From Planctomycetaceae bacterium (lineage in GTDB: Bacteria > Planctomycetota > Planctomycetia > Pirellulales > PALSA-1355): DNA of 37,806 nt. The stretch is from NCBI GenBank assembly GCA_003153375.1, contig PLYM01000255.1:9793-47598 (forward strand). Direction: 5' to 3'. The notes under the pieces are model-generated. The model was not told the DNA's origin. It made no database searches and saw only the letters and a program-made list of their open reading frames with translations. The position numbers and the translations under genes are program-made. Below are positions 1,207 through 32,418 of this stretch, piece by piece (position 1 is the stretch's first letter; every line of letters begins with the position of its first letter).

Positions 1207-4200
1207 CTACTGCGTCAGCTCAAGAATGCCATGGAGCGCGAACGTGGCGCGCTCGGGGCGGTTGTCGAGCTCATATTGCAGTTCTTCGATGGCCCGCTCC
1301 ATCAGGTGCACCTTGAGCAGCAGGTCGAGCTGCGGCTCGCTGCGCGGGAGCAGGTCGGTGGCGGCGGTGGCGGTAGAGTAGGCGCGCAGGAAGGCCGAAC
1401 TGCTCCAGGAGTACCAGAAATCAGCGGCCTGCTGCCAGGCGGCAATCGCGTCGGGCGCCACGACGCCGATCGTGGGCAGCCGCAACAGGGCCTCGGCGGC
1501 GGCATAGCGCAGCGAACGGACCATGCCGGCCACGTCCTCAAGCGCCGAGCGCTTGATGCGCCGCGCCGACAGCGGACGCCGCGCGTCGCCTTCGAAGTCG
1601 ATGACGACAAAGTCCTTGCCGGTATAGAGCACCTGGCCCAGGTGAAAGTCGCCGTGACAGCGAATGCGCTGCGCGAGAATCTTCGGTCCGACCAGGCCGC
1701 GAAAGACTTCGAGCACTTGTTTGTCGTGGTCCAATACCTGGGCGGCGGCTGCCTGGGTCTCGGGGCCGAGCGACTTGAGCTGGCGCTTGAGCTGTTGAAA
1801 GGCCTCGAAGGCCAGCTTGCGAGCCGATTGATAGAACGACCGCTGATAGAGCTGCGTGAACGGCTCGGGCGCGAAGGCCGGGTTGGCGGGTTCGGACGCC
1901 AAGGCCACGTGCATCTCGCCCGTGCGGCGGCCCAACAAGGCGGCCGACTCGAGGAACGCGCCCAGCAGATCTTTGGCGGCCTCGGGAGGCTCGCCCTTGG
2001 CCAGGGTCCACAGCGATTGGCGGCTGGCGCCATCGAGATCGGGACGCGCATCTAGACTGCCGGCCATCAGGTGTTCGAAGAACCGGCCCAACGAGTCCTG
2101 GGCAAATTGCCAGGCTGTGATCGTGTTGGGCACATAGCGGTGCAGGATGCCGACGTTCGTGGTCTCGCGATTGTCCAGGCGATATTCGAGCGAGCCGGCC
2201 ACCTGGGGCGTGTGCGGAAAACGGGTTTCCTCGCCATTGAGAAACCGCCCCATTTCGAAATCGGGGTTCACGCCGTTTTCAACCCGGCGAAAGAGCTTCA
2301 AAATCCATTGGTCGCCGAACACGACCGCGTTCTTAGTCTGATCGATGCGGGCCGGCGCGATCGACAGCTTCTCGGCCTCCTCGCCGTTCTTCTCCAGCAG
2401 CGCGTTGGACCAGCCGAGCAACTCGCCGTGCGAACCCTTCAAACGGCGGCGGCGAATCATCAGTTGCAACAGCGCGCTAGTGGCCGTGGGATCGAGCGAA
2501 GCGTCGTAGAGCACGCCCGATTCCTTGGTCGCCGCGTTTTGAATGGGCGCCAGCACCTGGGCTGGCGAAGTGGTGACCACGCGCTCGGCGTCGGCCCCCC
2601 AGGCAATGCCCAGCGGCAGAGCGTACGTCTCCGGCTCCGATTCCATGAACTCGATGCGCACCAACAGCAGCCGCGGTGCGGAGCGATCGGCGGCCTTGCT
2701 CAGGGGAATCGCGTCGATGATCCGCAGGCTCTGAATCCCTCGGAGCTTGCCGCCGAACCAGCGACGATGCGGCAGTTCGCGGATCAGAATCCGCTCGAAG
2801 CTCGAGCGCATGCGGCCGCGTACTAGTTCCGACGCGCGCGCGGGAATCACGAGCCGCGTGATTTCCTGTCCGTCGTCCTCGCCCGGCGCCGGTTCGCGCT
2901 CGAGCGCGAACCAATAGAACGAATGCGGCGCCACCGTCAGCACGTAGGGCGTCGTGCCAATCCGCGGGAAAGCCGTGCGCCCAAACACTTCCACCGGCTG
3001 CCGCCCGGCGAACCGCGACAGGTCGAGCTCGACGAACTGCACGTAGCGCGACATGTTGGCCACGACCAGCACGCTTTGCTGCTCGAGGTCGCGCGTGAAA
3101 GCCAGGATCTTGGGATTCTCGGGCGCCAGCATCTCGAGGCTGCCGCGTCCGAGCGCCGGATATTTTTGCCGCAGGGCGATGAGCCGTTTCATCCACCACA
3201 ACAGTGAGTGCGGATTCTTCTGCTGGTTCTCGACGTTCACCGTCTCGAACAGGTATTCGGGATCGACGATCACGGGCGAATAGAGCCGCTGCGGATTGGC
3301 ATCGGAGAAGCCGGCGTTGCGGTCGGGGCTCCATTGCATCGGCGTGCGCACGCCGTCGCGATCGCCCAGATAGATGTTGTCGCCCATGCCGATTTCGTCG
3401 CCATAGTAGATGACAGGCGTGCCCGGCAGCGAGAACAGCAAGGCGTTCATCAACTCGATTCGCCGGCGGTCGTTGCCCAACAACGGCGCCAAGCGGCGGC
3501 GAATGCCCAGGTTGATCCGAGCCTGCATGTCGCGGGCATAGACCCGATACATATAGTCGCGCTCTTCGTCGGTAACCATTTCGAGGGTCAATTCGTCGTG
3601 ATTGCGCAGAAACACGAACCACTGGCAGTCGGGCGGAATGGCGGGCGTCTGTTGCAAGATGTCGACGATCGGATAGCGGTCCTCCATGTGGATGGCCATG
3701 AACAACCGCGGCATGATCGGAAAATGAAAGGCCGCCTGGCACTCGTCCCCCTCGCCAAAATAGGCGATCGCGTCCTCGGGCCATTGGTTGGCCTCGGCCA
3801 ACAGCATGCGGCCGGGAAACTCAGCGTCAATGTGCTGCCGCACCTTCTTGAGAAAAGCGTGGGTCTCGGGCAGGTTCTCGCAGTTCGTGCCTTCGCGCTC
3901 GTAGAGATAGGGCACGGCGTCGAGCCGCAGACCATCGACGCCCAGCCGCAGCCAATAGTCCAAGGCATCGAACATCACCTGCTGCACGCGCGGATTCTCG
4001 AAGTTCAGATCGGGCTGATGGGCATAGAAGCGGTGCCAGTAGTAGGCCTTGGCCGTGGGATCCCACGACCAGTTCGAGACCTCGAAGTCCTTGAAAATGA
4101 TGCGCGCATCCTGATATTTTTCCGGCGTGTCGCTCCAGACGTAAAACTCTCGGGCGGGCGAACCGGGCTTCGAGCGCCGCGCGCGCTGGAACCAGGGATG

Positions 4201-4578
4201 CTGATCCGAGGTGTGGTTGAGCACCAGCTCGGTGATCACGCGCAGTCCGCGGACGTGGGCCTCGCGCACGAAGGTCTTGAAATCGCGCAGGTCGCCGTAC
4301 GAAGGGTTGACGTCCGTGTAGTCGGCGATGTCATAGCCGTCGTCGCGGAGTGGCGAGGGATAGAACGGCAGAATCCAGAGGGCCGTGACGCCCAGATCCT
4401 GCAAGTAGTCGAGCTTTTGCGTCAACCCGGCAAAGTCGCCGATGCCGTCGGCGTCGCTATCGCGGAAGGAGCGGACGTGAAGCTGATAGATGATCGCGTC
4501 TTTGTACCACGTGGGGTTGCCGTCGAGCGCCGGTTCGGCCTCGGCTTCGTGGGAACCTGGGGGAACTTTTTTGGCCAT
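1207..4578 (-). CDS. treS: Trehalose synthase / maltokinase fusion (TreS-Mak)
   Basis: A 1123-aa fusion. The N-terminal part (about residues 25-560) is a GH13 trehalose synthase that interconverts maltose and trehalose. Its nucleophile Asp lies in GLRLDAVPYLYE near residue 219, the acid Glu in LLAEANQWP near 260, and an NHD motif follows in the barrel. The C-terminal part (about 700-1123) is a maltokinase (Pep2 type) that makes maltose-1-phosphate from maltose and ATP. It shows the kinase-like loop RCHGDFHLGQ near 976 and IDFEGD near 991. Such fusions commonly feed the GlgE pathway, but no glgE is visible here. The ATG at 4578 was chosen because the TreS-type sequence starts there (MAKKVPPG, then WYKDAIIYQLHVRSF). 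The longer open frame upstream is antisense-like noise within treZ. The gene lies 29 bases downstream of treZ, probably in one operon. Confidence 0.95.
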   Translation of the reverse strand: MAKKVPPGSHEAEAEPALDGNPTWYKDAIIYQLHVRSFRDSDADGIGDFAGLTQKLDYLQDLGVTALWILPFYPSPLRDDGYDIADYTDVNPSYGDLRDFKTFVREAHVRGLRVITELVLNHTSDQHPWFQRARRSKPGSPAREFYVWSDTPEKYQDARIIFKDFEVSNWSWDPTAKAYYWHRFYAHQPDLNFENPRVQQVMFDALDYWLRLGVDGLRLDAVPYLYEREGTNCENLPETHAFLKKVRQHIDAEFPGRMLLAEANQWPEDAIAYFGEGDECQAAFHFPIMPRLFMAIHMEDRYPIVDILQQTPAIPPDCQWFVFLRNHDELTLEMVTDEERDYMYRVYARDMQARINLGIRRRLAPLLGNDRRRIELMNALLFSLPGTPVIYYGDEIGMGDNIYLGDRDGVRTPMQWSPDRNAGFSDANPQRLYSPVIVDPEYLFETVNVENQQKNPHSLLWWMKRLIALRQKYPALGRGSLEMLAPENPKILAFTRDLEQQSVLVVANMSRYVQFVELDLSRFAGRQPVEVFGRTAFPRIGTTPYVLTVAPHSFYWFALEREPAPGEDDGQEITRLVIPARASELVRGRMRSSFERILIRELPHRRWFGGKLRGIQSLRIIDAIPLSKAADRSAPRLLLVRIEFMESEPETYALPLGIAWGADAERVVTTSPAQVLAPIQNAATKESGVLYDASLDPTATSALLQLMIRRRRLKGSHGELLGWSNALLEKNGEEAEKLSIAPARIDQTKNAVVFGDQWILKLFRRVENGVNPDFEMGRFLNGEETRFPHTPQVAGSLEYRLDNRETTNVGILHRYVPNTITAWQFAQDSLGRFFEHLMAGSLDARPDLDGASRQSLWTLAKGEPPEAAKDLLGAFLESAALLGRRTGEMHVALASEPANPAFAPEPFTQLYQRSFYQSARKLAFEAFQQLKRQLKSLGPETQAAAAQVLDHDKQVLEVFRGLVGPKILAQRIRCHGDFHLGQVLYTGKDFVVIDFEGDARRPLSARRIKRSALEDVAGMVRSLRYAAAEALLRLPTIGVVAPDAIAAWQQAADFWYSWSSSAFLRAYSTATAATDLLPRSEPQLDLLLKVHLMERAIEELQYELDNRPERATFALHGILELTQ

Positions 4579-4607
4579 TCGGCAGATACCAGGGTGATGG
4601 GCGACGC

Positions 4608-6512
4608 TCAGTCGAGCGGTTCGGGCGCGAGCACGATCGCGGCGTGGCCCGGCAGAAACCAATGGCGCGGATCGAGCACGCCGGCCCCCGCGCCGCCATA
4701 GCAGGGGCTTTCGCTCGACCATAAAAGCTTCCAGCGCCTGCCGGACGGCGGCACCAGCAGCGGGTCGGTCATCGGACGGCAATCCAGGTCGCGGCCCAAG
4801 TTGACCAACAGCAGCCGATCGTCGCCTTCGCGGCCCAGGTAGCGTAGCAGGAACGCCTCGCCCGAGAGGACCGAGCCGTGCAGCCGATCGGCTCGCTGCG
4901 CGGCAAACACCGGATCTTCGCGGCGCAGACGCAGCAAGTCGCGGTGCAGGACGTAGGCTTCGGCGTGCAGCGCCCGCTCGGCATGATCGAGCTTCGAGGC
5001 TTCGAACGTCAAGCGGTCCGCGGGATCGGCCAGGTGTTCGGCCGCGTCGGGTCCGGCCATGCGGCCGAACTGCCGCAGGCAATCGTGCCGGCCGGTGCGC
5101 ACCAGTTCAGCCAACTCGCCCTGGTGGTCGGCAAAGTATTGAAAGCGGCTCGAAGCCGAAAATTCCTGGCCCTGAAACAACAGCGGCGTGCCCGGCGCCA
5201 GCAGCAACAAGGCGGTCAGCGCGCGGTGGCGGCCCGGCGAGGTCAGTTCGTGCAGCCGGCGACCCTGCGGCGAGTTGCCGATCTGATCGTGGTTTTGCAG
5301 AAAGATCACGAACTGCGGCGCCTCGACATCGAGTGCCGGAAAACCGCGGTGTCGTTCTTGCCGATGATTCCATTGTCCCTGGTAGAGATAGCCCCACTTT
5401 ACAGCCGAGATCAACTCTTGCGGCGTGCCGAGATAGTCGCCGAAGTAATACTCGGCGTGCCCGGTGCTCGCCACGCGGGCCGAGTGGTGGAAGTCGTCGT
5501 TCCAGGCGGCGTCAAGTCGACCTGAGTGCGGATCGCCACCGCGCAGTCGGCGCGAATCCTGGAATTCATCCTCGGCGACCACCAGCGTGTTGCGTCCGCC
5601 TGCCGCCTCGTGCACGCGGCGCCGCACGGCGGCCACGATGTGCTCGCTCGAGTCGTCGAAAATCGCCTGCACCGCGTCGAGCCGCAGGCCGTCGATATGA
5701 AACTCATCGGCCCAGTAGCCGGCGTTGGCGATGAAGAACTCGCGCACCGGCTGGCAATTGTCGCCGTCGAAGTTGACCGCCTCACCCCAGTCGGTGCGAT
5801 GCTTGGGCGACAGGTAAGCGGCGGAGAACTGGCCCAGATAGTTGCCAACCGGGCCAAAATGGTTGTAGACCACATCCAACATCACGCCCAGGCCATGGCG
5901 ATGGGCCTCGTCGACAAAGTGGCGAAAATCGTCGGGCGTGCCATACAAGCGCGTCGGCGCGAACAGATCGACGCCGTCGTAGCCCCAGCCGAACTGGCCG
6001 TCGAACTCGGCGACCGGCATGACCTCGAGGGTCGTGATGCCCAACTCGGCCAGTGCGGGCAGGTGGCGCACGGCGGCTTGCCAGGTGCCCTCGCGCGTGA
6101 AGGTGCCGATGTGCATTTCGTAGAAGACCTGGCCCAACAGCGAAATGCCGGGCCACTGCCCGTCGCGCCAGACGTAGCTCGCGGGATCGACAACCTCCGA
6201 AGGACCATGCGGTCCCTCGGGCTGACGCCGCGAGGCCGGATCGGGGAGCACCAGGACCTCGTCGTCGAGACGAAAGCCATAGCGCGTGCCGGTCGAGGCC
6301 CGCGGCGCGAAGCCGGAAAAATATCCGTCGTCTTCGGCGGTTAACAGCAGCGGCTCGACGGCGGCCGCTTGGGCGGCGACGACGAAGTTCACTTCCACTT
6401 TGCGGCGTCGCGGCGCCCAGACGCGGAAATGCACCCCGCCGTTGCGTTGCACCTCGGCGCCAACGGGTAGCCGCCGCGCCATCGCCTGCCGCTTCTGGGA
6501 GATCGTCGCCAT
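4608..6512 (-). CDS. treZ: Malto-oligosyltrehalose trehalohydrolase
   Basis: A 634-aa GH13 enzyme that releases trehalose from maltooligosyl-trehalose. An N-terminal CBM48-like domain (GGVHFRVWAPRRRKVEVNF) precedes the barrel. The barrel carries DGLRLDAVQAIFDDS (nucleophile near residue 278), VVAEDEFQD (acid Glu near 312) and FLQNHDQIGN (Asp near 408). LFAPTRLYGTPDDF and the aromatic Phe-Asp region match TreZ better than branching enzyme. The ATG at 6512 has AGAAGGA about 10 bases upstream. The in-frame extension to 6638 overlaps the 5' region of nothing else but lacks conserved sequence. TreZ normally works after TreY (maltooligosyl trehalose synthase). No treY is in the window, so it must be elsewhere or absent. 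The next gene on the strand is treS, 29 bases away. Confidence 0.93.
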   Translation of the reverse strand: MATISQKRQAMARRLPVGAEVQRNGGVHFRVWAPRRRKVEVNFVVAAQAAAVEPLLLTAEDDGYFSGFAPRASTGTRYGFRLDDEVLVLPDPASRRQPEGPHGPSEVVDPASYVWRDGQWPGISLLGQVFYEMHIGTFTREGTWQAAVRHLPALAELGITTLEVMPVAEFDGQFGWGYDGVDLFAPTRLYGTPDDFRHFVDEAHRHGLGVMLDVVYNHFGPVGNYLGQFSAAYLSPKHRTDWGEAVNFDGDNCQPVREFFIANAGYWADEFHIDGLRLDAVQAIFDDSSEHIVAAVRRRVHEAAGGRNTLVVAEDEFQDSRRLRGGDPHSGRLDAAWNDDFHHSARVASTGHAEYYFGDYLGTPQELISAVKWGYLYQGQWNHRQERHRGFPALDVEAPQFVIFLQNHDQIGNSPQGRRLHELTSPGRHRALTALLLLAPGTPLLFQGQEFSASSRFQYFADHQGELAELVRTGRHDCLRQFGRMAGPDAAEHLADPADRLTFEASKLDHAERALHAEAYVLHRDLLRLRREDPVFAAQRADRLHGSVLSGEAFLLRYLGREGDDRLLLVNLGRDLDCRPMTDPLLVPPSGRRWKLLWSSESPCYGGAGAGVLDPRHWFLPGHAAIVLAPEPLD

Positions 6513-6583
6513 GCAGCCGCTGTCCTTCTTGCGCCCGCCGCCCGCGCGCACAGTCGTTCGCCGAAATTCGTTGTTGCGAGCCA

Positions 6584-6871
6584 CTAACGGGGCGCCCGTC
6601 CCGGCATGACCACGCGGGAGATCCCGATCAGGATGCAAGCGCCCACGAAGGCGATCACAATGCTGCCCCAGAACCCGGCGTCACCTTGTATGAACATACC
6701 GGAAACAAAGCCGCCCACCAGGGCCCCAATCAATCCCAGGACAATGTCGCGAACGATGCCGTAGCCGCCACCGCTCATCACCGAACCGGCCAGCCATCCG
6801 GCAATCAAGCCCACCACGATCCACGAAATAACGCCGCCCGGGCTCATCACGATTTCAGCAAGCATGTTCAT
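6584..6871 (-). CDS. GlsB/YeaQ/YmgE-type stress-response membrane protein
   Basis: A 95-aa hydrophobic protein with three predicted membrane segments: WIVVGLIAGWLAGSVM, then DIVLGLIGALVGGFVSGMF, then a C-terminal one ending in RVVMPG. The glycine-rich pattern (GLIAGWLAG, GLIGALVGG) is typical of the GlsB/YeaQ/YmgE (transglycosylase-associated) family of about 85 aa, which is linked to general stress. Its biochemical role is unknown. The ATG at 6871 follows a good GGGGAGA ribosome site. A longer frame begins at 6913 but adds only a non-conserved leader. The gene lies divergently from csbD across a 380-base region, which suggests shared stress regulation. Confidence 0.88.
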   Translation of the reverse strand: MNMLAEIVMSPGGVISWIVVGLIAGWLAGSVMSGGGYGIVRDIVLGLIGALVGGFVSGMFIQGDAGFWGSIVIAFVGACILIGISRVVMPGRAPR

Positions 6872-7251
6872 AACAGGTCTCCCCGCGATAGGTCGGGCTG
6901 CGTCCGCGAACAAGACGAGCGACCGAGAAATGGCTTGACGAACGGTCCGCGAGGGTGTTTGAGGAGCAGAAATCGTGCCGAATTGACGGAATACCCAATT
7001 GCGGGGAGGCCCAGCGGCGCGCCGCCTCTCTCACCGGCTGCCGGCGAACCAAAGCGGGTGTTCGATGACCAAGCTCGAGCAGAGAGGCCGTTTCGGCGCT
7101 AATGCCGCATGAGGCACGACTTAGCGGGCTCCTTGCTCCTGGGTCACCGCTTAAAAATTCGTCGGCATATCGTTTGCAATCTCTAACCAACTATTGTCAC
7201 CGGGCTTGCGTTGCATGCAACGCTTCTTGCATTCTCATAAGGAGAGCTATC
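6872..7251. other. Divergent intergenic region between glsB-like gene and csbD
   Basis: This 380-base region has no credible gene. It must hold the promoters for the leftward GlsB-like gene and the rightward csbD. I could not identify a convincing -35/-10 pair. The one clear element is the palindrome at 7208-7223, annotated separately. An AAGGAG ribosome site at about 7239-7245 belongs to csbD. Confidence 0.6.
7208..7223. promoter_or_regulatory. Perfect 16-bp palindrome upstream of csbD, candidate operator
   Basis: GCGTTGCATGCAACGC reads identically on both strands with no spacer. It ends 28 bases before the csbD ATG and 15 bases before its ribosome site. A spacer-free palindrome suits a dimeric regulator better than a hairpin terminator. 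No regulator gene is adjacent, so its identity is unknown. Confidence 0.45.
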
Positions 7252-7452
7252 ATGTCGGGAAAGGCAGAAGAACTGAAGGGCCGCGTCAAGGAAGCCGCCG
7301 GCGCTGTGACCGATAACAATCAGCTGCGGCGCGAGGGAAAAGTCGACCAGGCGCGCGGCAAGGCCAAGCAGGCGATCGAAAAGGTTGCCGACAAGGCCAA
7401 GGAAGTCGTCGATCGGACGAAGGAAAAGCTCGACCGGGCGACCGACGAATAA
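7252..7452 (+). CDS. CsbD family stress-response protein
   Basis: A 66-aa, highly charged, helix-forming protein beginning MSGKAEELKGRVKEAAG. The repeated pattern (GxxKxxxG, then DQARGKAKQAIEKV) is characteristic of the CsbD/YjbJ family. The family is strongly induced by general stress in Bacillus and enterobacteria, and its molecular role is unknown. The ATG at 7252 is set by the ribosome site AAGGAGAG about 7 bases upstream. The longer frame starting at 7102 runs through the promoter region and has no family similarity. The length is normal for the family. Confidence 0.93.
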   Translation: MSGKAEELKGRVKEAAGAVTDNNQLRREGKVDQARGKAKQAIEKVADKAKEVVDRTKEKLDRATDE

Positions 7453-7515: not shown

Positions 7516-10500
7516 CTAGACGGCCAGACGCCGGGAACGGCCGTCTTCGGGCGGGGCGGCGAGATGTTCACGGACCCAATCGAGCCAGCCGTCGGTCGGC
7601 GAGCGATAGGGCCGGAACTTCTCGAGCACTTCTTGCTCCTCGCTGTGAAACAGCGCGCGATGGGGGCCCAGCTTGCTCGCCGCGGGCGTATCGATCAGCG
7701 TGCTGGAATCGTTAGCGCCCATCTGCAACACGACGCGCAGCTCGAACTCGCGCAAGGTTTGCCGTTCCCAGGTGCGATTCAGATTATTGAGGCTGTCGCA
7801 CCAGGCCAGCACGTGAATGCCCACGGACGGTCCATCGCGCAAGACGGCGGCAAATTGCTTGGCGGGGTCAGGCGGGCGCTCCTCGCCGCCGCGCGAAAAG
7901 CCAAAATCATCTTCGCCACGCCGCAACTCGCGCAGCTTTTGCACGCCATAGACCAGCACAAAGATCGGCGGGAACTCGACGTCGGACTGTTGTTGACGCT
8001 GCGCGACCTCGGTGGCCAGCTCGTTGGTCGCGGCGGCCAATTCGCGCCAGGTGAAGATGCGCACCGGATCGGAGGTCAGCCGGGCTAGCTCGGCAAGTGC
8101 CGCGCCCTGAGTGGAACCGGCGGCGCTGCCATCGAACACGAAGAATCGCGCGCATTGGTCAACCGACGCGGGATGCTGAGCCGAGAGGCTGACGAGCGCC
8201 ATCGTGAACAGCCCCAACGCGGCTTCATCGTTCTGGCCGACAATCAATAGATTGGTGCCGCTTTGACGCCGGAAGACCACCGAGGTGGGATCCTTGATCG
8301 CGACGGCTTCGCCTAACCAGGCTTGGGCCGCCGCGGGAGCGGTGGCCGGGCGGCCGGCGGCCAACAGCCTCACCAGCAGCTCGTTGCGCTCGGGATTGGC
8401 CGGCACGTTGCCCTCGAACACCAATTGCGGCCGGGCAGCGATTTGCTGGCGTTCGACCAGCATTTGAATCTGGTCGAGATATTTTTCGCGTCGTTCATCG
8501 CCCAGCCACACGACCTGGAACGGATGGTTGCCTTCGACCAGGCCGTTCGAGTCGTTGTAGATCGCTTCGCCGGCTCGCGACAGCAGGCGGGCCGCCGAGT
8601 TGTCCTCGCTGAGAATCAAATGGGCGTCGGTCTCGCTGCACTGCAAGGCGACGCGCACGGCCATCTGGCCGATCGTGCTGCGGGCCAGCGTGTAGGTGCC
8701 GGCCAGCGTCTGCGACCCCAACAGGACGTGAATACCGAAGGCGCGACCTTGGCGCACCAGGCGGTCGAGCAGCAAGCCGGCATCCTGCGCGATCTTGTCG
8801 TCCTCGACGAAGAATTCCTGGAACTCATCGACGATGATCAGGATGCGCGGCATCGGCCGGCTCTTGTCGGCTTCGCGAAAGCCGGCCAGATCTTGCACGC
8901 CCAAGGCGCGAAACGCCTCGGCCCGCGAGCGCAGCTCGGCATCGAGCCGCGCCAGGACGCTGGTGCCGAATTCCCGATCGCTTTCGATGGCCACGACGCG
9001 CGCGTGGGGCAGGTGGTGCGTGGCGTAGGTTTTGAATTCGACGCCCTGCTTGAAGTCGATCAGGTAGAGTTCGATCTCGTCGGGGTTGTAACGCAGGCAG
9101 AGGTTCGTGATCAGCGCGTGCAGCAACGTCGATTTGCCCGAGCCGGTCTTGCCGGCCACGAGCACGTGCTGCGAAGTGCCCTGGCCCAGCCGCATATACT
9201 GCAGCCGCGTGGCGCCGGCGCGGCCCAACGGAACGTCGATACCCGAGCGGGTGGAGCCGGTCCACAACTCTTCCGGCGAGGGCGCGATCACCTCGAACGG
9301 CACCTCGACGCGCCCGGCGTCGACGGCATACTGGCCGGCCAGTTGCAGCATCTCGGTGACTTGCGTGGGCTGCGGCGCGCCATCGAGTGTCAGGGCGAAC
9401 GCATCGAACGGCTTCTGCTTCCAGGCGAACTGCCCTTGATTCCAGACCAGCGTGGTGGCGTGCTGCTCGATATCGGCCAGCGACACACCGGTGGCCAGCG
9501 GCAGTTGGGTGTCGACCATCATCAGGATCGAGACACCGCACCGCGCGCCGCTGGCGGCGATCGACATCAGACGGCGCTGGGCCGCCTCGCTGAAGTTGGC
9601 CGGAAAATTGGCGATCACCAGAAAGCGGTAGGGCTCGGCGATCTCGCCGGCCTGACGGTTGTATTGCTCAATGCTCTCGAACTCGTTGCGGAGATACTTC
9701 TGGATCACATTCTCCATGTGCTCCGAAATGTCGGTCAGCCGTTGTTCGATGTGGCGGGGGTCGGTCCAAATGCGGCTGGCGATCAGCGCCTCGTTGTAGT
9801 CAGCCAGGTGCATGAAGGCGGCAAAATTCTCGCCCAGTCCGACCGGGTCGATGATCGTCATCCGCAGCTTGCCCGGCGGCACCGTGACCAAGAGCCGCAG
9901 CATGACGGCCTGCATCGTTTCGACCGCCACGCGGCGGCCATTGCCCTGGGCCTTGAAGAGCAGCGACGATTTGTCGGGGAACGGCACCATGGCCGGCAGC
10001 CAGTAGCCGCGCGGAGCCATGTCGGCCAACGACCGCTCGGCCGGCACGCCGCCGGGAATCTGGTCGAGGTTCACGCGGAACTGGCCAAAACGAATCGCGG
10101 GTGGAACCTGGGAGGCGGCGGCCCAGTGGCCGTCGAGCTGGCTCCAGTCGGCCAGGCAGGCGGGGCGCGGCTCGGCACCTCGATCGCCCCAGATCTCGCG
10201 CGCGGTTGCTTGTAAGCGCGCCAGGCCGGCGCGCCATTGCTCGCTGAGGGCCTGCCATTGGGCCGCCTGGCGCTCTTCGATTTCTTGCGTTTGCCGCCGA
10301 TAGCGGTCTTCGATCACGGTGCGCTGGGCTTCCTTCTGGCGAAGCTCGGCATCGCGGCGCGCGCGGGTTGATTCGGCCAGCCCCAGATCGCGATCGTGCC
10401 GTTGGGCAATCTCCTCCAGCTTCTTGGGATAGGTCAGGGCGGGACCCTGGAGGCGCTGATCGCGGCGTTCATCGCGGCGCGCCACTCGCGACGCGTATTT

Positions 10501-11493
10501 TTGCTGCGCCAGCTCGAGTGCCTGCACTCGGCGCTGATCGACTTCGGCCTGCTGCGCCGCGGCACGGGCGCGGGCGGCTGCGACGGCCTGCTCGGCCAGG
10601 CGTTCGGCATCCTGCGTGGCGGCCGACAGGGGCGGATAGACGGTGAGAATCTGTTGGCGGGCCAGGCGGCGCAAATAGAAACTGGAACCCACACCCAGCG
10701 CGACGAAGAGCAGCAGGATTCCGGCGGCCACGCCGGTACTTTGTTCGGTTCCCAAGGCAACGCCGGCCAGCGCCAGTCCCGAGAGCACGAACACCCAGGC
10801 CAGCGTGAAGTGGGCGGCCAGGGCCGGCACGCGCAACTGGCCAAGTCGCTGCCGCTGGCTAATCGAGAACTGCACGCGCTCTTCGACGTCGGCCAGCGTC
10901 GCGGTCGCGCCTTCGCTGGACAACGGGGGTGGCGACGGCACCTCGGGTACGGCTTGCCGCCATTGGCTCAACAACTCCTCGGCCTCTTCGCGCTCCGAGC
11001 GCGCGCGTTCGAGCCAACCCGCGACGAGCACTTCGAACTCTTGCAGTTGGCGCGGCGCGATGTGGCGGGCCGCTTCGTAAACGGTGTCGGCCTCCCAGCC
11101 CGCTTCCTTGAGTTTGCGCTCGGCCTTCTTGGCCGACATGGCATATTCCTGCGCAACTTGCTGTTGCAACTCGGAGAACTGCCGCTCGACGGTCGCCGCC
11201 TCCTGTTCGAATCGCGCGGCGGCGTGGCGGCGCTGCTCGGCGTAGTCGTTTTCCAGGTCGCGCCGCTCGACTTCGAGCTCGACGGCCAGCGCCCGGCGCG
11301 AATCCTCGACGGCCCGCTTCGCGGCGTTCGAGGCGGCCTGATATTGGGCCGTGACGCGCGATTCGCCTGCCTGACGATCGGTGACCGTCTGCGCCAGGTC
11401 GATCAGAAACTGCACCTCGCGCGCCTGGGGGTCGCCTGGCGGGCTGTCGGCCGCGGGCGGAGCAAGGTTGCGAGGCGAGTCTTCGGAAGTCAT
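7516..11493 (-). CDS. FtsK/SpoIIIE-type ATPase, EssC/EccC-like, with N-terminal coiled coil
   Basis: A 1325-aa protein expected to power export of WXG100-type substrates. Residues 1-215 are charged and Ala/Glu/Arg-rich, probably a long coiled coil. Two membrane segments lie at about 222-278 (LAWVFVLSGLALAGVAL and GILLLFVALGVG). A second charged helical region follows. Three RecA/FtsK-like units then appear. The first, near 500-620, has AQGNGRRVA where a P-loop would be. The second has an intact Walker A, GKTGSGKS, near 781-788 and Walker B RILIIVDEFQEFF near 886. The third has the degenerate VGQNDEAA near 1084. There is no N-terminal FHA domain as in Firmicute EssC. The ATG at 11493 lies 28 bases after the preceding small gene, in the same operon as the WXG100 gene. 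A role in DNA translocation is possible, but the operon partners favour protein secretion. Confidence 0.88.
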   Translation of the reverse strand: MTSEDSPRNLAPPAADSPPGDPQAREVQFLIDLAQTVTDRQAGESRVTAQYQAASNAAKRAVEDSRRALAVELEVERRDLENDYAEQRRHAAARFEQEAATVERQFSELQQQVAQEYAMSAKKAERKLKEAGWEADTVYEAARHIAPRQLQEFEVLVAGWLERARSEREEAEELLSQWRQAVPEVPSPPPLSSEGATATLADVEERVQFSISQRQRLGQLRVPALAAHFTLAWVFVLSGLALAGVALGTEQSTGVAAGILLLFVALGVGSSFYLRRLARQQILTVYPPLSAATQDAERLAEQAVAAARARAAAQQAEVDQRRVQALELAQQKYASRVARRDERRDQRLQGPALTYPKKLEEIAQRHDRDLGLAESTRARRDAELRQKEAQRTVIEDRYRRQTQEIEERQAAQWQALSEQWRAGLARLQATAREIWGDRGAEPRPACLADWSQLDGHWAAASQVPPAIRFGQFRVNLDQIPGGVPAERSLADMAPRGYWLPAMVPFPDKSSLLFKAQGNGRRVAVETMQAVMLRLLVTVPPGKLRMTIIDPVGLGENFAAFMHLADYNEALIASRIWTDPRHIEQRLTDISEHMENVIQKYLRNEFESIEQYNRQAGEIAEPYRFLVIANFPANFSEAAQRRLMSIAASGARCGVSILMMVDTQLPLATGVSLADIEQHATTLVWNQGQFAWKQKPFDAFALTLDGAPQPTQVTEMLQLAGQYAVDAGRVEVPFEVIAPSPEELWTGSTRSGIDVPLGRAGATRLQYMRLGQGTSQHVLVAGKTGSGKSTLLHALITNLCLRYNPDEIELYLIDFKQGVEFKTYATHHLPHARVVAIESDREFGTSVLARLDAELRSRAEAFRALGVQDLAGFREADKSRPMPRILIIVDEFQEFFVEDDKIAQDAGLLLDRLVRQGRAFGIHVLLGSQTLAGTYTLARSTIGQMAVRVALQCSETDAHLILSEDNSAARLLSRAGEAIYNDSNGLVEGNHPFQVVWLGDERREKYLDQIQMLVERQQIAARPQLVFEGNVPANPERNELLVRLLAAGRPATAPAAAQAWLGEAVAIKDPTSVVFRRQSGTNLLIVGQNDEAALGLFTMALVSLSAQHPASVDQCARFFVFDGSAAGSTQGAALAELARLTSDPVRIFTWRELAAATNELATEVAQRQQQSDVEFPPIFVLVYGVQKLRELRRGEDDFGFSRGGEERPPDPAKQFAAVLRDGPSVGIHVLAWCDSLNNLNRTWERQTLREFELRVVLQMGANDSSTLIDTPAASKLGPHRALFHSEEQEVLEKFRPYRSPTDGWLDWVREHLAAPPEDGRSRRLAV

Positions 11494-11521
11494 GCGCGTC
11501 GGGGGGCGAATGCCCGCGGGA

Positions 11522-11746
11522 TTAATGTTCGCAATCGTGTTGGGCCGCGGTCAGCGAAGCATTCAAGGCCCGCATCCGCTGCAAGGTGGCGTCGATTTGC
11601 GGGCCAAGTGGCTCGAGATACTTTTGCTCGAAGTCGCGGCTGACCGCATCGCGCCAGTCGGTCTTGGTCGAATCCCACCGCAGCAGCAGCTTCTTCCAGG
11701 CTTTGTGCAATTTGGTGGTGCCAGTGGTCAAGTCGCCGGGCTTCAT
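11522..11746 (-). CDS. Small helical WXG-like protein
   Basis: A 74-aa, mostly helical protein with no family I can name with certainty. Residues 31-39 read WRDAVSRDF. The same W-R-D-x5-F spacing occurs in the WXG100 protein of this operon, where it marks the turn between two helices. The next part (YLEPLGPQIDATLQRM) would form the second helix. It may be a second, shorter WXG-type substrate or chaperone. Its ATG overlaps the stop of the upstream coiled-coil gene in an ATGA arrangement, which implies translational coupling. The ATPase gene starts 28 bases downstream. Confidence 0.75.
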   Translation of the reverse strand: MKPGDLTTGTTKLHKAWKKLLLRWDSTKTDWRDAVSRDFEQKYLEPLGPQIDATLQRMRALNASLTAAQHDCEH

Positions 11747-12402
11747 GGCTGAGCACTCCGCGGTTGTAAATCGGCAGGCGTAACGGGCGGCTCCGCGTCG
11801 ATGACGTCGTTGTTCTCCGCCGCGGTCACTCCGTCGTTCGAGGTTGCCGTGTCCGTTGGTCGGGCCATCGAGGCCAGCGGCGGCGCACTGGCGGTGCTGG
11901 CCGAGCCGGTGGTCGGCGCGGTAAAGGCGACGTAGGACTCCAGCGAATTCATGATGCGATCCAGTAGCGCGATGGCCTGCGGCAGATCGGCGTCGAACAT
12001 GCCTGCGAGTTGATGGGCCCGGCCGGTGTATTCATCGGCTTCGCGCTCGACGATGCCGGCCCAGCGTCGCACGGCCTCGACCTTGTCCTCGGCATACTGA
12101 CGGCGCTGGCGGGCCCGTTCGACCGCCTTGCGTTCTTCCATGCACGAGGGGGTGCCGCCGCCGGGCAGTTTGGAGCAGCGGCAGCGCTCGAGTTCGATCT
12201 TGGCTTCGGTCACCTGATCCTCGCAGATGCGGACTTGCTGCTGCCAGCGGCGGGGCTCGGCCTCGAGCAGCCACTCGAGCGTGCGGCGCACTTCCAGGTC
12301 ATAGGAGCACATCGCGTCGCGCACCTCGTCGAGAAAGGTGTGCAGCGCCGCGCGGAAATCGCGCACCGCCTCGAGCGAGCCGACATGGGCGCCGTCACTC
12401 AT
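11743..12402 (-). CDS. Coiled-coil protein of the type VII-like operon
   Basis: A 219-aa protein whose first 160 residues are predicted long helices rich in Arg, Glu and Ala. The tail (about 163-219) is Pro/Ala/Ser/Thr-rich and probably disordered. Cys73, Cys75 and Cys87 flank a loop (CRCSKLPGGGTPSC) between two helices. Within a helical hairpin this could bind metal or form a disulfide. Trp residues at 44 and 53 lie in the first hairpin. I do not recognise a named family. The position between a WXG100 protein and the ATPase suggests an export partner, scaffold or substrate. The ATG at 12402 has AAGGTG nine bases upstream. An ATG at 12435 would add 11 residues and overlap the preceding stop region. 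Confidence 0.72.
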   Translation of the reverse strand: MSDGAHVGSLEAVRDFRAALHTFLDEVRDAMCSYDLEVRRTLEWLLEAEPRRWQQQVRICEDQVTEAKIELERCRCSKLPGGGTPSCMEERKAVERARQRRQYAEDKVEAVRRWAGIVEREADEYTGRAHQLAGMFDADLPQAIALLDRIMNSLESYVAFTAPTTGSASTASAPPLASMARPTDTATSNDGVTAAENNDVIDAEPPVTPADLQPRSAQP

Positions 12403-12436
12403 CTTCGCTGCACCTTGGTTCCTGACTGCCGGCATG

Positions 12437-12709
12437 CTAGCGCTGCCGCAAATACTCTTCGACCCGATCGGCCTTGCGCAGCAGGAACGGGACGTGCTGC
12501 TGGGCTGACTCCAGAAAGCGGTTGGTGGCCGCCAGCGTCAGCTCGAACTCCTCGGTGAACTTGACCTGCTCCTGATCGCGCCAGCTTTGTCCCAGTGTGT
12601 TGAGTTGCCCGCGCAGCATCAGCATCTGGTTCTGCAACTCGGCGCTGAACCGCTCGAGGTTCCGCGCAAAGCGCCGCAATTCATTCGGATCGACAATCGC
12701 CTGTGACAC
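12437..12709 (-). CDS. WXG100 family protein (ESAT-6-like)
   Basis: A protein of about 90 aa with two helices joined by a turn at residues 43-45, Trp-Arg-Asp, in place of the classic Trp-x-Gly. The sequence around it (LNTLGQSWRDQEQVKF) and the total length are typical of WXG100 proteins, which are exported as dimers by type VII systems. The start is uncertain. I prefer the GTG at 12709, giving VSQAIVDPNELRRF, because this looks like the natural beginning of the first helix and has GGGG upstream. Another GTG at 12745 gives 102 aa without a clear ribosome site. It is the first gene of the four-gene leftward operon that ends with the FtsK/SpoIIIE ATPase. Confidence 0.85.
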   Translation of the reverse strand: MSQAIVDPNELRRFARNLERFSAELQNQMLMLRGQLNTLGQSWRDQEQVKFTEEFELTLAATNRFLESAQQHVPFLLRKADRVEEYLRQR

Positions 12710-13087: not shown

Positions 13088-13786
13088 ATGGAGTCGCCGG
13101 AAGATCCGGGGGTTTTCGTTGTTTACGGCAGAAATGTAAATGCATATCGTGAAATGCGCAAGTTTCTCTCTACTGTGGGAGCGCGCGAGTGGACGTTCGA
13201 GGACGCAAGCGATGCCCAGGCAAACTCGTTCGTCACCGAAATCGTGCTGCATTGCATCGAACGAGCCAGCGCGGTGATCGTGCTCTTCACCGCCGATGAG
13301 CTGGCGGCGCTCTATAAGGCGGAACGATTGGCGGGCCGGAACTCAGAGACTGTCGATGAATTTCGGTGGCAGCCCAGGCCCAACGTTATCTTCGAAGCTG
13401 GAGTCGCGTTCGGAAAAAAACGGAAGGAAACGATTATTGTCGCAGTCGGTCGTGACGTCTCCGGCTTCTCCGACATTGCGGGTGTACATTTGGTCCGCCT
13501 GACGAATCGGCAGGGCAAACAAAGCTTGCGCCGGCGACTTGCCGGAATCATCAAAGGCATGCCCGAACAATTGCGAGACGACTGGGAGGATCCGGTCTTC
13601 TCCGGCGATTTCGATGCCTGCACGATAAAGCGATGGCCGATTTACGACGAATTGCAAGATCTCGAAGGCACATTGCGCGGTCGGTCGGTGGCCAGAAAAG
13701 ACAAGAAGAAGGGTCGGAAGCAGTCAAAGGTATCCTACACGCTGTTCGAGATCATCTGCGAGGTGTTGTCCGAAGGACTCGCGTGA
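13088..13786 (+). CDS. TIR-like nucleotide-binding protein (CAP12/Pycsar TIR type)
   Basis: A 232-aa protein. Residues 9-155 match the TIR-like domain seen in CBASS and Pycsar effectors. They comprise an opening strand VFVVYGRN (9-16), a helix with MRKFLSTVG, a strand SAVIVLFTADE (61-71), and RPNVIFEAGVAFGKK, in which Glu103 is the expected NADase glutamate. DIAGVHLVRL then matches the family's closing 'D..G...i.l' strand. Such domains cleave NAD+ in abortive-infection defence when activated by a nucleotide signal. No cyclase is adjacent. Residues 165-232 form a separate region that appears to continue in the +1 frame after the stop (next feature), so the true product may be about 307 aa. Codon and base use are less GC-biased than the neighbours, suggesting acquisition by transfer. 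The ATG at 13088 is preceded by GAGAGA. Confidence 0.82.
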   Translation: MESPEDPGVFVVYGRNVNAYREMRKFLSTVGAREWTFEDASDAQANSFVTEIVLHCIERASAVIVLFTADELAALYKAERLAGRNSETVDEFRWQPRPNVIFEAGVAFGKKRKETIIVAVGRDVSGFSDIAGVHLVRLTNRQGKQSLRRRLAGIIKGMPEQLRDDWEDPVFSGDFDACTIKRWPIYDELQDLEGTLRGRSVARKDKKKGRKQSKVSYTLFEIICEVLSEGLA

Positions 13787-14012: not shown

Positions 14013-14035
14013 GACGAGGTTTCTCCTCACGTCTC
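14011..14035. terminator. Short hairpin between the TIR tail and ligD
   Basis: GAGACG at 14011-14016 pairs with CGTCTC at 14030-14035, and AGG at 14017-14019 with CCT at 14025-14027. It spans the convergent ends of the TIR fragment and ligD. No T run is present, so a terminator role is tentative. Confidence 0.3.
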
Positions 14036-16693
14036 GAGTTGCTTGCGCATCTTGGCAGTGAAGGTTTGCTGCACGTCGGCCATCTCGGACCAGGGGTCGC
14101 GGTCGAGGGACTTGATGCGGCGCAGAACGCTGGAGACGTCGAAACGGTCGCCGGAGCTGACGCGGCCCAGCTCGTCCCAGGTGATGGGCACTGCCACCGG
14201 CGCGCCGGCGCGGGCGCGGGTCGAGTAGGCGGCCACGGAGGTGGCGCCGCGCTGGTTGCGCAGATAGTCGACAAAGATCTTGCCGTGGCGGGCACTCTTG
14301 GTCATCGTGGCGATGAAATCGTCGGGGGCTGCTCGCGTGACGGCCACGGCGACGGCTTTGGCGAAGTCGGCCACGGCGGGCCACTCGTGGCGCCGCGCCA
14401 AGGGCACGACCAGGTGCAGCCCCTTGCCGCCGCTGGTCTTGACGAAGCTGGTCAGGCCCAGCTCCTCGAGCAGGTCGCGAATCTGCCGGGCCGCGGCCAC
14501 GGTTCGCTTCCAGGGCACGTCGTCGGCCGGGTCGAGATCGAAGATCAACCGATCGGGCCGCTCGAGCGCATCGGCGCGCGAGCCCCACACGTGCAGCTCG
14601 AGCGCGCCGAACTGCACCAGCTCAATCAGGTCGCCCGCCTCGCGAATGACGACGTACTCGCGGGTGCCTTCCTTTTCTTTCACCGACACTCGAGCAAGCC
14701 GCTCGAGCATGCCGGGCGTGGGATGCTTTTGAAAGAATCGCGGACCTGACAAGCCGGCGGGACAACGCACGATCGACAACGGCCGATCGGCCACGTGCGG
14801 CAGCATCCACGGCGCCACGGCCAGATAATAGTCGGCTAAATCGCGCTTGGTGATTCGCTGGTCGGGATACAACACGCGGTCGGGATGCGTGAGCCGCTGC
14901 CCGGCGATGGTGGCGGCTTCGGCCGATTTTGCCGGTCCGGGTTTAGACGAGGCCGACTTGGACGAAGAGGTTTTGCGCGCGGCGCCGTTCGCGTCTGCGT
15001 TTTTGGAATGCGCCTTGCCTTCGACCTGGGCCACCGGTGCCGGCTGCTCGCGATGCACGCTGCGGGCCGGCTTGTCTTCGCGCAGACCGAGGAACGCGGG
15101 ATGCCGCAGCAGACCATCGCGGGTCCAGTTGGAATAGCGAACCTGGGCCACGAGGGTCGGCCGCACCCAGTGGGCGCCGCGCTCGCGCTTAATCTTGGCG
15201 GCGGCAAAGGGTGATTTCTTCAACTCGAGCCGGTGCAGCTTTTTCGAAAGTTGGCCCAGCAGCTTGTCATCAAAGCCGGTGCCCACGCGGCCGGCATATT
15301 GCAGCTCGCCCGACGCGTCGTAGTAACCCAATAGCAGGGCCCCGAAGCCGACGCGCGAACCGCCGGGCTGGGTGAAGCCGCCGATCACGAACTCGCTGTT
15401 GGCCGCGCACTTGATTTTCAGCCAGTCGGGACCGCGGCCCGGCTGGTGCGGGCGATCGGCGCGCTTGGACACCATGCCCTCAAGACCCAGGCGCGCGGCT
15501 TCGGCGAAGAACACGTCGCCATGCCCGGCAATGGACTCGGTGAGGCGGATCGGTCCGCGGTTCGAGGGGAGCTTGAGCGACTTGAGCCGCGCTTTGCGAT
15601 CGGCCAGCGGCAAGGGGCGCAGATCTTCGCCGTTGAGCCACAGCAGATCGAAAACATAGTAGATCAAGGGGCCGCTGCCTTCGTGCAGGGCCTGCTGCAA
15701 GTTCTGAAAATCGCTGACGCCGTGCTCGTCGAGCGCCACGACCTCGCCGTCAATGATCGCGTTGTCCACATTCAGGCGCCCGCAGGCCGCGGCCACGGCC
15801 GGAAACTTCGCGGTCCAATCCAGGCCCCCGCGCGTTTGCAGCCGCACTTCGCCATGGTCGACAAAGGCCACGATGCGATAGCCGTCGAACTTGAACTCGT
15901 GGATCCACTCCGGTCCCTCGGACGGCTTGTCGACGAGCGTGGCCAGCTGCGGCTTGATCGACGTCGGCAGATGCTGCGAGCCGGCGGCGCTTTTGCCCTT
16001 GCTGATGGTTTTGGCCACTCGCGATCGAGCAGCCGATTTTTTCGCTACCGACGATGCCTTGGACTTGGGCCGCGCGCTCGATGTTTTGGGATGCGAGGCC
16101 TTGCCATCGGTCGAGTCCCAGACGGCGTCGCCGGCGGAGGCAATTTCGTCCAAGTCACGCCCACTGGCCACACTCAGCGGCTCGCGGGCGGCGACATCGA
16201 ATTTCGCATGGTCGCGGGCTTCCTCGTCGCGCTCCTTGATCAGCAGCCACTGACGAGGATCGCGCCCGTGGCCGCCGGCGCGGACGAGGGTCCAGCCGCC
16301 GTTGAGTTTTTCGCCGTGCAGGCGGAACTTGAGTTTCCCGGCGCGGTAGCCCGCCGCGGCGTCGCCGACCGGCTCCCAATTGCCGCGATCCCAGAGCATG
16401 ACGGTGCCACCGCCGTATTGGCCCTCGGGTATCGTGCCTTCGAAACCGCCGTATTCGAGCGGGTGGTCTTCGACGGCCACGGCCAGCCGCTTTTCGGCTG
16501 GGTCGAGACTCGGTCCCTTGGGCACGGCCCAGCTCTTGAGCACGCCATCGAGCTCGAGGCGAAAATCGTAGTGCAGATGCGACGCATCGTGCTTCTGCAC
16601 CACGAAAGCGCGGCCACGGCCGGAGGCCGGTTTGCCGCGCGGCTCCCGCGTCTTTTGGAAGTTTCGCTTCCGCCGATATTCCGCCAGGGGCAT
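14027..16693 (-). CDS. ligD: Multifunctional DNA ligase D (phosphoesterase-ligase-polymerase)
   Basis: An 888-aa NHEJ enzyme with the domain order of Pseudomonas LigD. Residues about 1-165 are the 3'-phosphoesterase (FVVQKHDASHLHYDFRLE, then WAVPKGPSLDP and the EGTIPEGQYGGG loop). A Lys/Ser/Ala-rich linker follows (about 190-245). The ATP-dependent ligase spans about 250-560, with the adenylated Lys near 269 in EFKFDGYR. A second Lys-rich linker precedes the primase-polymerase domain (about 598-885), which has LTHPDRVLYP, the DLDP metal motif near 718 and TSGGKGLHLV near 751. It processes and seals double-strand breaks bridged by Ku, encoded about 2.3 kb away. The ATG at 16693 gives the usual MPLAEYRRKRNFxKT start. 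Confidence 0.96.
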   Translation of the reverse strand: MPLAEYRRKRNFQKTREPRGKPASGRGRAFVVQKHDASHLHYDFRLELDGVLKSWAVPKGPSLDPAEKRLAVAVEDHPLEYGGFEGTIPEGQYGGGTVMLWDRGNWEPVGDAAAGYRAGKLKFRLHGEKLNGGWTLVRAGGHGRDPRQWLLIKERDEEARDHAKFDVAAREPLSVASGRDLDEIASAGDAVWDSTDGKASHPKTSSARPKSKASSVAKKSAARSRVAKTISKGKSAAGSQHLPTSIKPQLATLVDKPSEGPEWIHEFKFDGYRIVAFVDHGEVRLQTRGGLDWTAKFPAVAAACGRLNVDNAIIDGEVVALDEHGVSDFQNLQQALHEGSGPLIYYVFDLLWLNGEDLRPLPLADRKARLKSLKLPSNRGPIRLTESIAGHGDVFFAEAARLGLEGMVSKRADRPHQPGRGPDWLKIKCAANSEFVIGGFTQPGGSRVGFGALLLGYYDASGELQYAGRVGTGFDDKLLGQLSKKLHRLELKKSPFAAAKIKRERGAHWVRPTLVAQVRYSNWTRDGLLRHPAFLGLREDKPARSVHREQPAPVAQVEGKAHSKNADANGAARKTSSSKSASSKPGPAKSAEAATIAGQRLTHPDRVLYPDQRITKRDLADYYLAVAPWMLPHVADRPLSIVRCPAGLSGPRFFQKHPTPGMLERLARVSVKEKEGTREYVVIREAGDLIELVQFGALELHVWGSRADALERPDRLIFDLDPADDVPWKRTVAAARQIRDLLEELGLTSFVKTSGGKGLHLVVPLARRHEWPAVADFAKAVAVAVTRAAPDDFIATMTKSARHGKIFVDYLRNQRGATSVAAYSTRARAGAPVAVPITWDELGRVSSGDRFDVSSVLRRIKSLDRDPWSEMADVQQTFTAKMRKQLET

Positions 16694-19017: not shown

Positions 19018-19884
19018 TCAGGCGGTACGGCGCTTCGTCGTTCGTCGTCGCTTTGCCGCCGGCGTCGCGCGGGAGAGAGCGGCGGTCTTCTTGCCGCGGC
19101 CTTGCGTCTGGGCGACACTCTTGCGCAATGCATCCATCAGATTGATAACCGGCGATTCTTCGTCGCGCGGGGCCTTGACGATTTCCTTGCCCTCGACCTT
19201 GGCGGCGATCAGTTGCTGGACGCGTTGGGTGTACTGATCGTGATACTGCGCAAGGTCGAACTTCTTGCGGGTCGAGCTTTCGATCAACTTGGTGGCTAGC
19301 CGTAGCTCCTCCTTGGGCACTGCGCTGGAGTCAAGCTCGCCCACGACGTCGCCCGCCGCGCGAATTTGTTGAGCGTAGTGCAACATCTCGACACACAATA
19401 CACCCTCCCGAGGACGGATCAGCACCAACTGCTCGCGGCCGAAGAAGACAGCCTGGCCCACGGCCCAGCGATTCAGATGTTCGAGCGCCTCGACCAGCAC
19501 CGCATAGGGCTTGTTGGCCATCGCTCCATCGGGCGCCAGGTAATAAGTGCGGCCGTCGAAGTAGACCGGATCAATCGCGTCGGCCGCCACAAAGGTGTCG
19601 ATGTTGATCGCGCGGTCCGACGCGGTCCGCAACTTGTCCACCTCGTCGTCGTCGATCACGATATATTGCCCCTTGGCATATTCATAGCCGCGAACAATCT
19701 CGTCGTTGGGCACCTCGCCGTGTACCGGGCAGATTTTCTGGTAGCGGATACGGTTGTGGCACGACGCGTGGAGCTGGTGAAAGTGCAGCTCGCCGCCGCC
19801 ACTTTCGGCCGCATTGAAGGCCTGGACGGGCACCGACACCAAACTCAGCCGGAGATAACCTTTCCAACTCGAGCGCGCTGCCAT
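19018..19884 (-). CDS. ku: Ku protein, NHEJ DNA-end binding
   Basis: A 288-aa bacterial Ku, which encircles broken DNA ends as a homodimer and recruits LigD. Family features are SWKGYLRLSLVSVPVQAF at the N-terminus, LHFHQLHASCHNRIRYQKIC with the conserved region after strand 2, YEYAKGQYIVIDDDEVDKL, and later AVGQAVFFGREQLVLIRP. The C-terminal tail is Lys/Arg-rich (QGRGKKTAALSRATPAAKR), a basic extension thought to help DNA binding and end bridging. The ATG at 19884 has GAGGAG 8 bases upstream. A frame extending to 19965 adds only a non-conserved leader. The length is normal. LigD is encoded on the same strand downstream, separated by three stress-type genes. Confidence 0.96.
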   Translation of the reverse strand: MAARSSWKGYLRLSLVSVPVQAFNAAESGGGELHFHQLHASCHNRIRYQKICPVHGEVPNDEIVRGYEYAKGQYIVIDDDEVDKLRTASDRAINIDTFVAADAIDPVYFDGRTYYLAPDGAMANKPYAVLVEALEHLNRWAVGQAVFFGREQLVLIRPREGVLCVEMLHYAQQIRAAGDVVGELDSSAVPKEELRLATKLIESSTRKKFDLAQYHDQYTQRVQQLIAAKVEGKEIVKAPRDEESPVINLMDALRKSVAQTQGRGKKTAALSRATPAAKRRRTTKRRTA

Positions 19885-20214
19885 GGACGTGAACTCCTCG
19901 AAAACCGGGGGTGGCCGGAACGGCCCGAGGCCGGGCCTAGGCGGCGATGCTAGCGTTGCTAGCAAACCCTATACCGAGGGGTGGCTTGTCGCGGAATCCA
20001 CGGATCCCCGCGCGCCGCGGAGTGTCTGGCGACCAGCGCGGGCGGTACGGAGCCGGATCTTCCGCCCCCTGGACCGCGATTCGGCGGCAAACGGCTGGGC
20101 CAAAGTCTGTGCCTGTTTGGCATGTTAACTGCGGAGTAAGGGGAAAACCGGCCACCGGTCGGCGCGTGCGATGGAGCATGTTGTCTTGAGTGTCTGTTTT
20201 CGAGGAGTGCTACG
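19885..20214. other. Divergent intergenic region between ku and the secreted protein gene
   Basis: About 330 bases with no credible gene. It holds the inverted repeat TGCTAGC (19948-19954) / GCTAGCA (19958-19964) with a 3-base spacer, 64-80 bases upstream of the ku start, which may be an operator. GAGGAG at about 20202-20207 is the ribosome site of the rightward gene. No convincing promoter consensus was found. Confidence 0.5.
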
Positions 20215-29367: not shown

Positions 29368-32321
<2,954 letters not shown>

Positions 32322-32418
32322 CGATCCCTAACCAGTCTGTTGCTAAGTTTCAATTATTCGACGCTAGCCGCGGGAAGAACAGTCGTGCTCAGTGCTTCTC
32401 GGACCAATGGGTCTCGAA

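What the first reader, a model, noticed from the sequence alone, without database searches (positions are those of the whole stretch)
7516..12709. Minimal type VII secretion-like operon in a planctomycete-type genome
A WXG100 protein, a coiled-coil protein, a small WRD protein and an FtsK/SpoIIIE ATPase form one leftward operon. Canonical partners such as EccB, EccD, EccE, EssA/EssB, YukD or mycosin are not visible. How substrates cross a Gram-negative-type envelope is unclear.
Basis: partly seen in the sequence, partly recalled or inferred. Interest (0 to 1): 0.7.

Follow-up and report, generated by a model that had tools for sequence, protein, structure and literature searches.

The report
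Stripped-down type VII export module, Planctomycetota
This four-gene operon encodes a stripped-down relative of the type VII protein-export machine, kept as a fixed four-part set across many planctomycetes; the kind was noted in passing in 2012, but no description of this membrane-anchored, toxin-free form was found in the papers searched, and no export has been tested.

Summary
A leftward operon encodes a 90-aa WXG100 protein, a helical-hairpin protein, a 74-aa 'WRD' protein and an EccC/EssC-like ATPase. The same four genes, in one order, occur across Planctomycetota, one copy each. In 392 genomes, ATPase (61) and WXG100 (60) coincide in 58. In some genomes the genes are scattered, yet all four are kept: one functional set.

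The ATPase model has the EccC 'DUF' domain plus two FtsK-type domains; only the middle domain of three has Walker motifs; two TM helices precede them. The WRD protein is a second WXG100-like hairpin. YukC/EssB, EccB and EccD are not found, YukD only once, unlinked.

The kind is known: Zhang et al. 2012 list planctomycetes among lineages with solo WXG proteins and such an ATPase; Bell et al. 2024 describe a CoCoNuT-linked form; H. pylori HP0062 also has WRD. In a Helicobacter plasmid relative the hairpin slot holds a DNase-type protein followed by a SUKH immunity gene. The planctomycete form differs: anchored ATPase, hairpin without toxin, chromosomal, single-copy.

Best reading: a type VII-like exporter of its own hairpin proteins across the inner membrane. 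Export, substrate and outer-membrane step are inferred.

The parts
12437..12709 (-). WXG100-family protein, 90 aa, W-R-D at the hairpin turn, ends EYLRQR
   Evidence: PF06013 over cut-off; 110 of 120 distinct relatives are exactly 90 aa and 97 end Y[LMQ]xQR; closest solved structure H. pylori HP0062, 4.6e-11
11743..12402 (-). long helical-hairpin ('coil') protein, 219 aa from the conserved start; helices 10-76 and 88-161, disordered tail
   Evidence: AF2 mean pLDDT 84.6; co-conserved in 59 of 392 genomes
11522..11746 (-). 74-aa second WXG100-like protein ('WRD'), W-x-D turn
   Evidence: iterative and profile cross-matches to the WXG100 family; PF06013 the most frequent Pfam match among members, 2 of 17, best 8.8e-4
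7516..11493 (-). EccC/EssC-like ATPase, 1325 aa: N-terminal coiled coil, TM pair about 229-247 and 254-272, coiled coil, DUF domain about 432-725, active FtsK domain about 745-1015, degenerate domain about 1035-1310

Best explanation
It is a minimal type VII-like protein-export module of the 'solo WXG100 + EssC-like ATPase with only the middle domain active' kind. Proposed mechanism: the ATPase is anchored by its TM pair and assembles as a hexamer. The single competent FtsK-type domain hydrolyses ATP; the DUF and the C-terminal degenerate domain have structural or substrate-binding roles. The WXG100 and WRD hairpins form a dimer or bundle with the long hairpin protein and present a fixed C-terminal tail (EYLxQR) as the docking signal. 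The complex is moved across the inner membrane. In at least one plasmid-borne relative the long-hairpin slot carries a nuclease toxin; in the window and most planctomycetes no toxin domain is seen, so the exported object is probably the hairpin complex itself. Shown here: gene set, co-retention, domain make-up, absence of four known partner families. Inferred: hexamer, dimer, docking, export, outer-membrane step.
For: ATPase: EccC match over the whole core (Foldseek E 8e-30); residues 432-725 match the EccC5 DUF domain (8rin, Z 15.4, 226 aligned, 3.8 A), a domain of type VII ATPases; Walker A of the middle domain in 66 of 67 and Walker B in 67 of 67, none in the outer two domains; two TM-like segments in 55 of 67. 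Set: ATPase 61, WXG100 60, coil 59 of the same 392 genomes, ATPase and WXG100 together 58; in one complete chromosome (G161) the four lie at four separate places and are still all kept, and three ATPase-less genomes have no WRD protein. Relatives: Helicobacter plasmid order WXG100 / hairpin slot with WHH-Colicin DNase domain / SUKH immunity / 77 aa / FtsK; Caballeronia plasmid has the same order with TerY-P-type vWA, PP2C and kinase genes downstream.
Against: No export, complex or activity has been measured. The usual WxG and YxxxD/E signals are absent (0 of 115). No partner that crosses the periplasm or outer membrane is linked. Homology of the coil to the proteins in the same slot of the relatives is weak in sequence (best 1.8e-6 in a small set, none for Helicobacter) and rests largely on gene position. 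CoCoNuT relatives lack TM helices (PMC11090510), so a cytoplasmic role is possible.
Confidence: 0.6

Rival explanations
1. A full secretion system whose other membrane and envelope parts are encoded elsewhere and are too divergent for the family models used.
For: Genes of this module do scatter in several genomes, so unlinked partners are possible; only four partner families were tested.
Against: No linked fifth gene is consistently conserved; no YukC, EccB or EccD above cut-off in 12 genomes and YukD in only one, unlinked.
Confidence: 0.2
2. A cytoplasmic or membrane-bound defence or stress complex that is not secretory, as in CoCoNuT / TerY-P neighbourhoods, with the ATPase remodelling protein or nucleic acid.
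For: Relatives sit in CARF, TerY-P and TerD neighbourhoods and one carries a nuclease domain.
Against: Planctomycete copies have no such conserved neighbours, no Pfam nuclease domain in the window protein, a TM pair, and an EccC DUF domain; WXG100 proteins of studied systems are secreted (PMC3935865).
Confidence: 0.15
3. The ATPase is a DNA translocase of the FtsK type.
For: FtsK_SpoIIIE domain; single-domain fold matches to FtsK are as good as to EccC (FtsK 6t8b Z 23.9).
Against: The genome has other FtsK-like genes (C93, C223); whole-core and DUF matches are to EccC; near-obligate company of WXG100 proteins.
Confidence: 0.05

Closest known systems
[quoted passage not shown] 2012, PMC3482391, Table 1 footnote 6)
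   Same: Planctomycetes named; solo WXG; three ATPase-type domains, only the middle one active
   Different: That note calls them mobile versions of T7SS; here chromosomal, single-copy, phylum-wide; the second WXG100-like protein and the hairpin protein are not mentioned in the footnote
CoCoNuT-associated EssC-like ATPase / two WXG100 proteins / coiled coil-nuclease (Bell et al. 2024, PMC11090510)
   Same: Same four-part logic: ATPase with only the central domain active, two WXG100-like proteins, coiled-coil protein
   Different: Theirs lacks TM helices and has a nuclease on the coiled coil; the planctomycete ATPase has a TM pair and the coil has no toxin domain
Helicobacter pylori WXG100 secretion cluster, HP0062 and HP0066 (PMC4978471, PMC3397514)
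   Same: HP0062 is the closest solved structure and also has WRD at the turn; FtsK/SpoIIIE gene and HNH/ENDO VII nuclease in the cluster
   Different: Not compared gene by gene here; nuclease partner present there
T7SSa to T7SSj (Garrett et al. 2024, PMC11217815)
   Same: EccC/EssC ATPase plus WXG100 protein
   Different: Those ATPases have four NTPase-type domains and further conserved components; the partners tested are not found here; described only in Gram-positives

Membership tests
Solo-WXG / middle-active EssC-like module (Zhang 2012; Bell 2024) | Three ATPase-type domains, only the middle one with Walker motifs | tested here: met
   Walker A 0/67, 66/67, 0/67 by domain; three RecA-like domains in the AF2 model
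Solo-WXG / middle-active EssC-like module (Zhang 2012; Bell 2024) | WXG100 protein plus a second WXG100-like protein | tested here: met
   PF06013 in 17/17; WRD protein cross-matches (hhalign E 2e-4 but probability only 46%)
Solo-WXG / middle-active EssC-like module (Bell 2024 form) | Coiled coil fused to nuclease | tested here: not met
   Window coil ends in a disordered tail, no Pfam domain; in Phycisphaerae relatives the tail carries an Imm33-like domain
Solo-WXG / middle-active EssC-like module (Zhang 2012; Bell 2024) | Mobile element | tested here: inconclusive
   One copy per genome, no conserved mobility gene nearby, planctomycete ATPases one group 98/96; transfer not tested
EccC/EssC type VII ATPase | TM pair followed by DUF domain and FtsK-type domains | tested here: met
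EccC/EssC type VII ATPase | DUF plus three further NTPase domains; curated NCBIfam cut-offs | tested here: not met
   Only two after the DUF; EccCa 110 bits against 509, EssC 106 against 778
WXG100 / ESAT-6 proteins | About 100 aa, Pfam PF06013 over cut-off | tested here: met
WXG100 / ESAT-6 proteins | W-x-G at the turn | tested here: not met
   WxD in 115/115, WxG in 0; HP0062 also has WRD
WXG100 / ESAT-6 proteins | C-terminal HxxxD/ExxhxxxH pattern | tested here: inconclusive
   50/115 match within the last 40 aa
T7SSa / T7SSb | EccB and EccD, or YukC/EssB and YukD partners | tested here: not met
   one unlinked YukD in G008; for EccB no control genome rang, so that negative lacks a positive control
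T7SSa / T7SSb | Secretion of WXG100 proteins | not testable with these tools
   needs cells

The most novel reading that the evidence does not exclude
A domesticated, toxin-free four-protein export machine in a Gram-negative-type phylum in which the ATPase is the only membrane protein and forms the inner-membrane pore itself, exporting a hairpin complex with a housekeeping role.
Probability: 0.3. Interest if true: 0.7.

Novelty: new variant of a known kind. Interest (0 to 1): 0.45.

Why it matters
If it exports proteins, it would be among the smallest type VII-like machines defined, with four parts that evolution keeps together even when unlinked. That makes it a tractable case for asking what an EccC-type ATPase needs to move a protein across a membrane, and how such systems work in cells with an outer membrane.

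Tried and rejected
Foldseek and VIA-align on the coil gave only generic long-hairpin matches (best Z 10.5, uninformative for long helices). Unlinked WXG100 or coil neighbourhoods in seven genomes showed no convincing shared extra partner. A domain tree with EccC and FtsK has very long branches; only the planctomycete group is trusted, and whether the active domain is D1- or D2-like is unsettled. The GTDB contig scan returned only the best 80 of 461 relatives, all with planctomycete names or plain 'bacterium', so it does not bound the spread to other phyla. Anantharaman 2012 is not held; Sutcliffe 2011 was seen only through citing papers.

Full report
What is there. The window lies in a 6.7-Mb genome whose closest named relatives are Planctomycetota. 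PF06013 has a single hit in the whole genome.

It is a conserved set. Full-size orthologues of the ATPase occur in about two thirds of the 56 relatives searched, mostly of the same order. Around 34 complete copies, only the same three genes are consistently conserved within about 9 kb. The order WXG100-coil-WRD-ATPase is kept in 31 of 34 order loci, 30 of 40 phylum loci and all 44 GTDB loci that hold all four. Over the same 392 phylum genomes ATPase is in 61, WXG100 in 60 and coil in 59; 56 have all three. The five ATPase/WXG100 mismatches are mainly incomplete assemblies; the exception is G427 (98% complete, 320 contigs). Genomes are related, so the tiny hypergeometric value is not a fair probability. 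The stronger point is dispersal: in the one- or two-contig genomes G080, G161 and G408 the genes are far apart and still all present.

The ATPase. The core was modelled from 56 sequences (mean pLDDT 83). Its first domain matches the EccC5 DUF domain, the next two match EccC ATPases 2-3. FtsK single domains score as high by Z, so the fold of one domain does not separate the two; the DUF domain and the whole-core match do. Only the middle domain has Walker motifs. Two TM-like segments precede the core in most copies. The plasmid relatives lack such a pair, and Deinococcus and R. pseudokoreensis have a separate small protein with one TM segment next to the ATPase.

The small proteins. The WXG100 protein is the most conserved part (71% mean column identity against 47% for the ATPase in similar sets), almost always exactly 90 aa with a fixed end. 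Its turn is WxD, never WxG. HP0062 of H. pylori also has WRD (PMC3397514). The WRD protein is a shorter relative: profile cross-matches are consistent though the hhalign probability is modest. The coil is a two-helix hairpin with a disordered tail. In Phycisphaerae relatives the tail bears an Imm33-like domain (PF24719, best 2e-13).

Relatives outside the phylum. Plasmids of Rhodococcus, Deinococcus, Caballeronia and Helicobacter carry the ATPase. In Helicobacter the hairpin slot holds a WHH/Colicin-DNase protein followed by a SUKH immunity gene. In Caballeronia the slot protein is longer, has no Pfam hit, and TerY-P-type genes follow. This points to the hairpin protein as a carrier for effectors, but sequence support for its homology is weak.

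What is known. Zhang et al. 2012 (PMC3482391) name planctomycetes among lineages with solo WXG domains and a three-domain ATPase with only the middle one active. Bell et al. 2024 (PMC11090510) describe two WXG100 proteins, a coiled coil-nuclease and such an ATPase in CoCoNuT loci, and report that their ATPases lack TM helices. Garrett et al. 2024 (PMC11217815) define T7SSa-j in Gram-positives only. No paper in the held library mentions WXG100 with Planctomycetota, but the library is partial and other name forms exist, as the 2012 footnote shows.

Verdict. Observation right; kind already noted; this branch is a variant with an anchored ATPase, no toxin domain and strict four-part retention. Export is the best explanation (0.6) and is untested.

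Noticed in passing
window 13088-13786 (+): Divergent gene next to the operon with a CAP12/Pycsar-type TIR domain (PF10137, 7.9e-19; PADLOC PDC-S35); not conserved beside other copies of the module.
   Followed up: partly
window 14027-16693 (-) and 19018-19965 (-): LigD with polymerase, ligase and phosphoesterase domains, and Ku: a non-homologous end-joining pair.
   Followed up: no
window 1207-6638 (-), 7102-7452 (+): Trehalose synthase-maltokinase-like fusion, an alpha-amylase-family enzyme and a CsbD-like stress protein beside the operon.
   Followed up: no
window 23154-25612 (-): N6/N4 DNA methylase next to a GIY-YIG protein, possibly a restriction-modification pair.
   Followed up: no
window 29368-33894 (-): gyrB and dnaN close together, as near many replication origins.
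   Followed up: no
L085, L086, L087, L115, L137, L176, L178, L183: Coil protein with an extra C-terminal domain, Imm33-like where tested, mainly in Phycisphaerae; role unknown.
   Followed up: partly
L202:10489-14457: Rhodococcus plasmid ATPase has an N-terminal TerD domain (4.4e-19), beside separate TerD genes.
   Followed up: no
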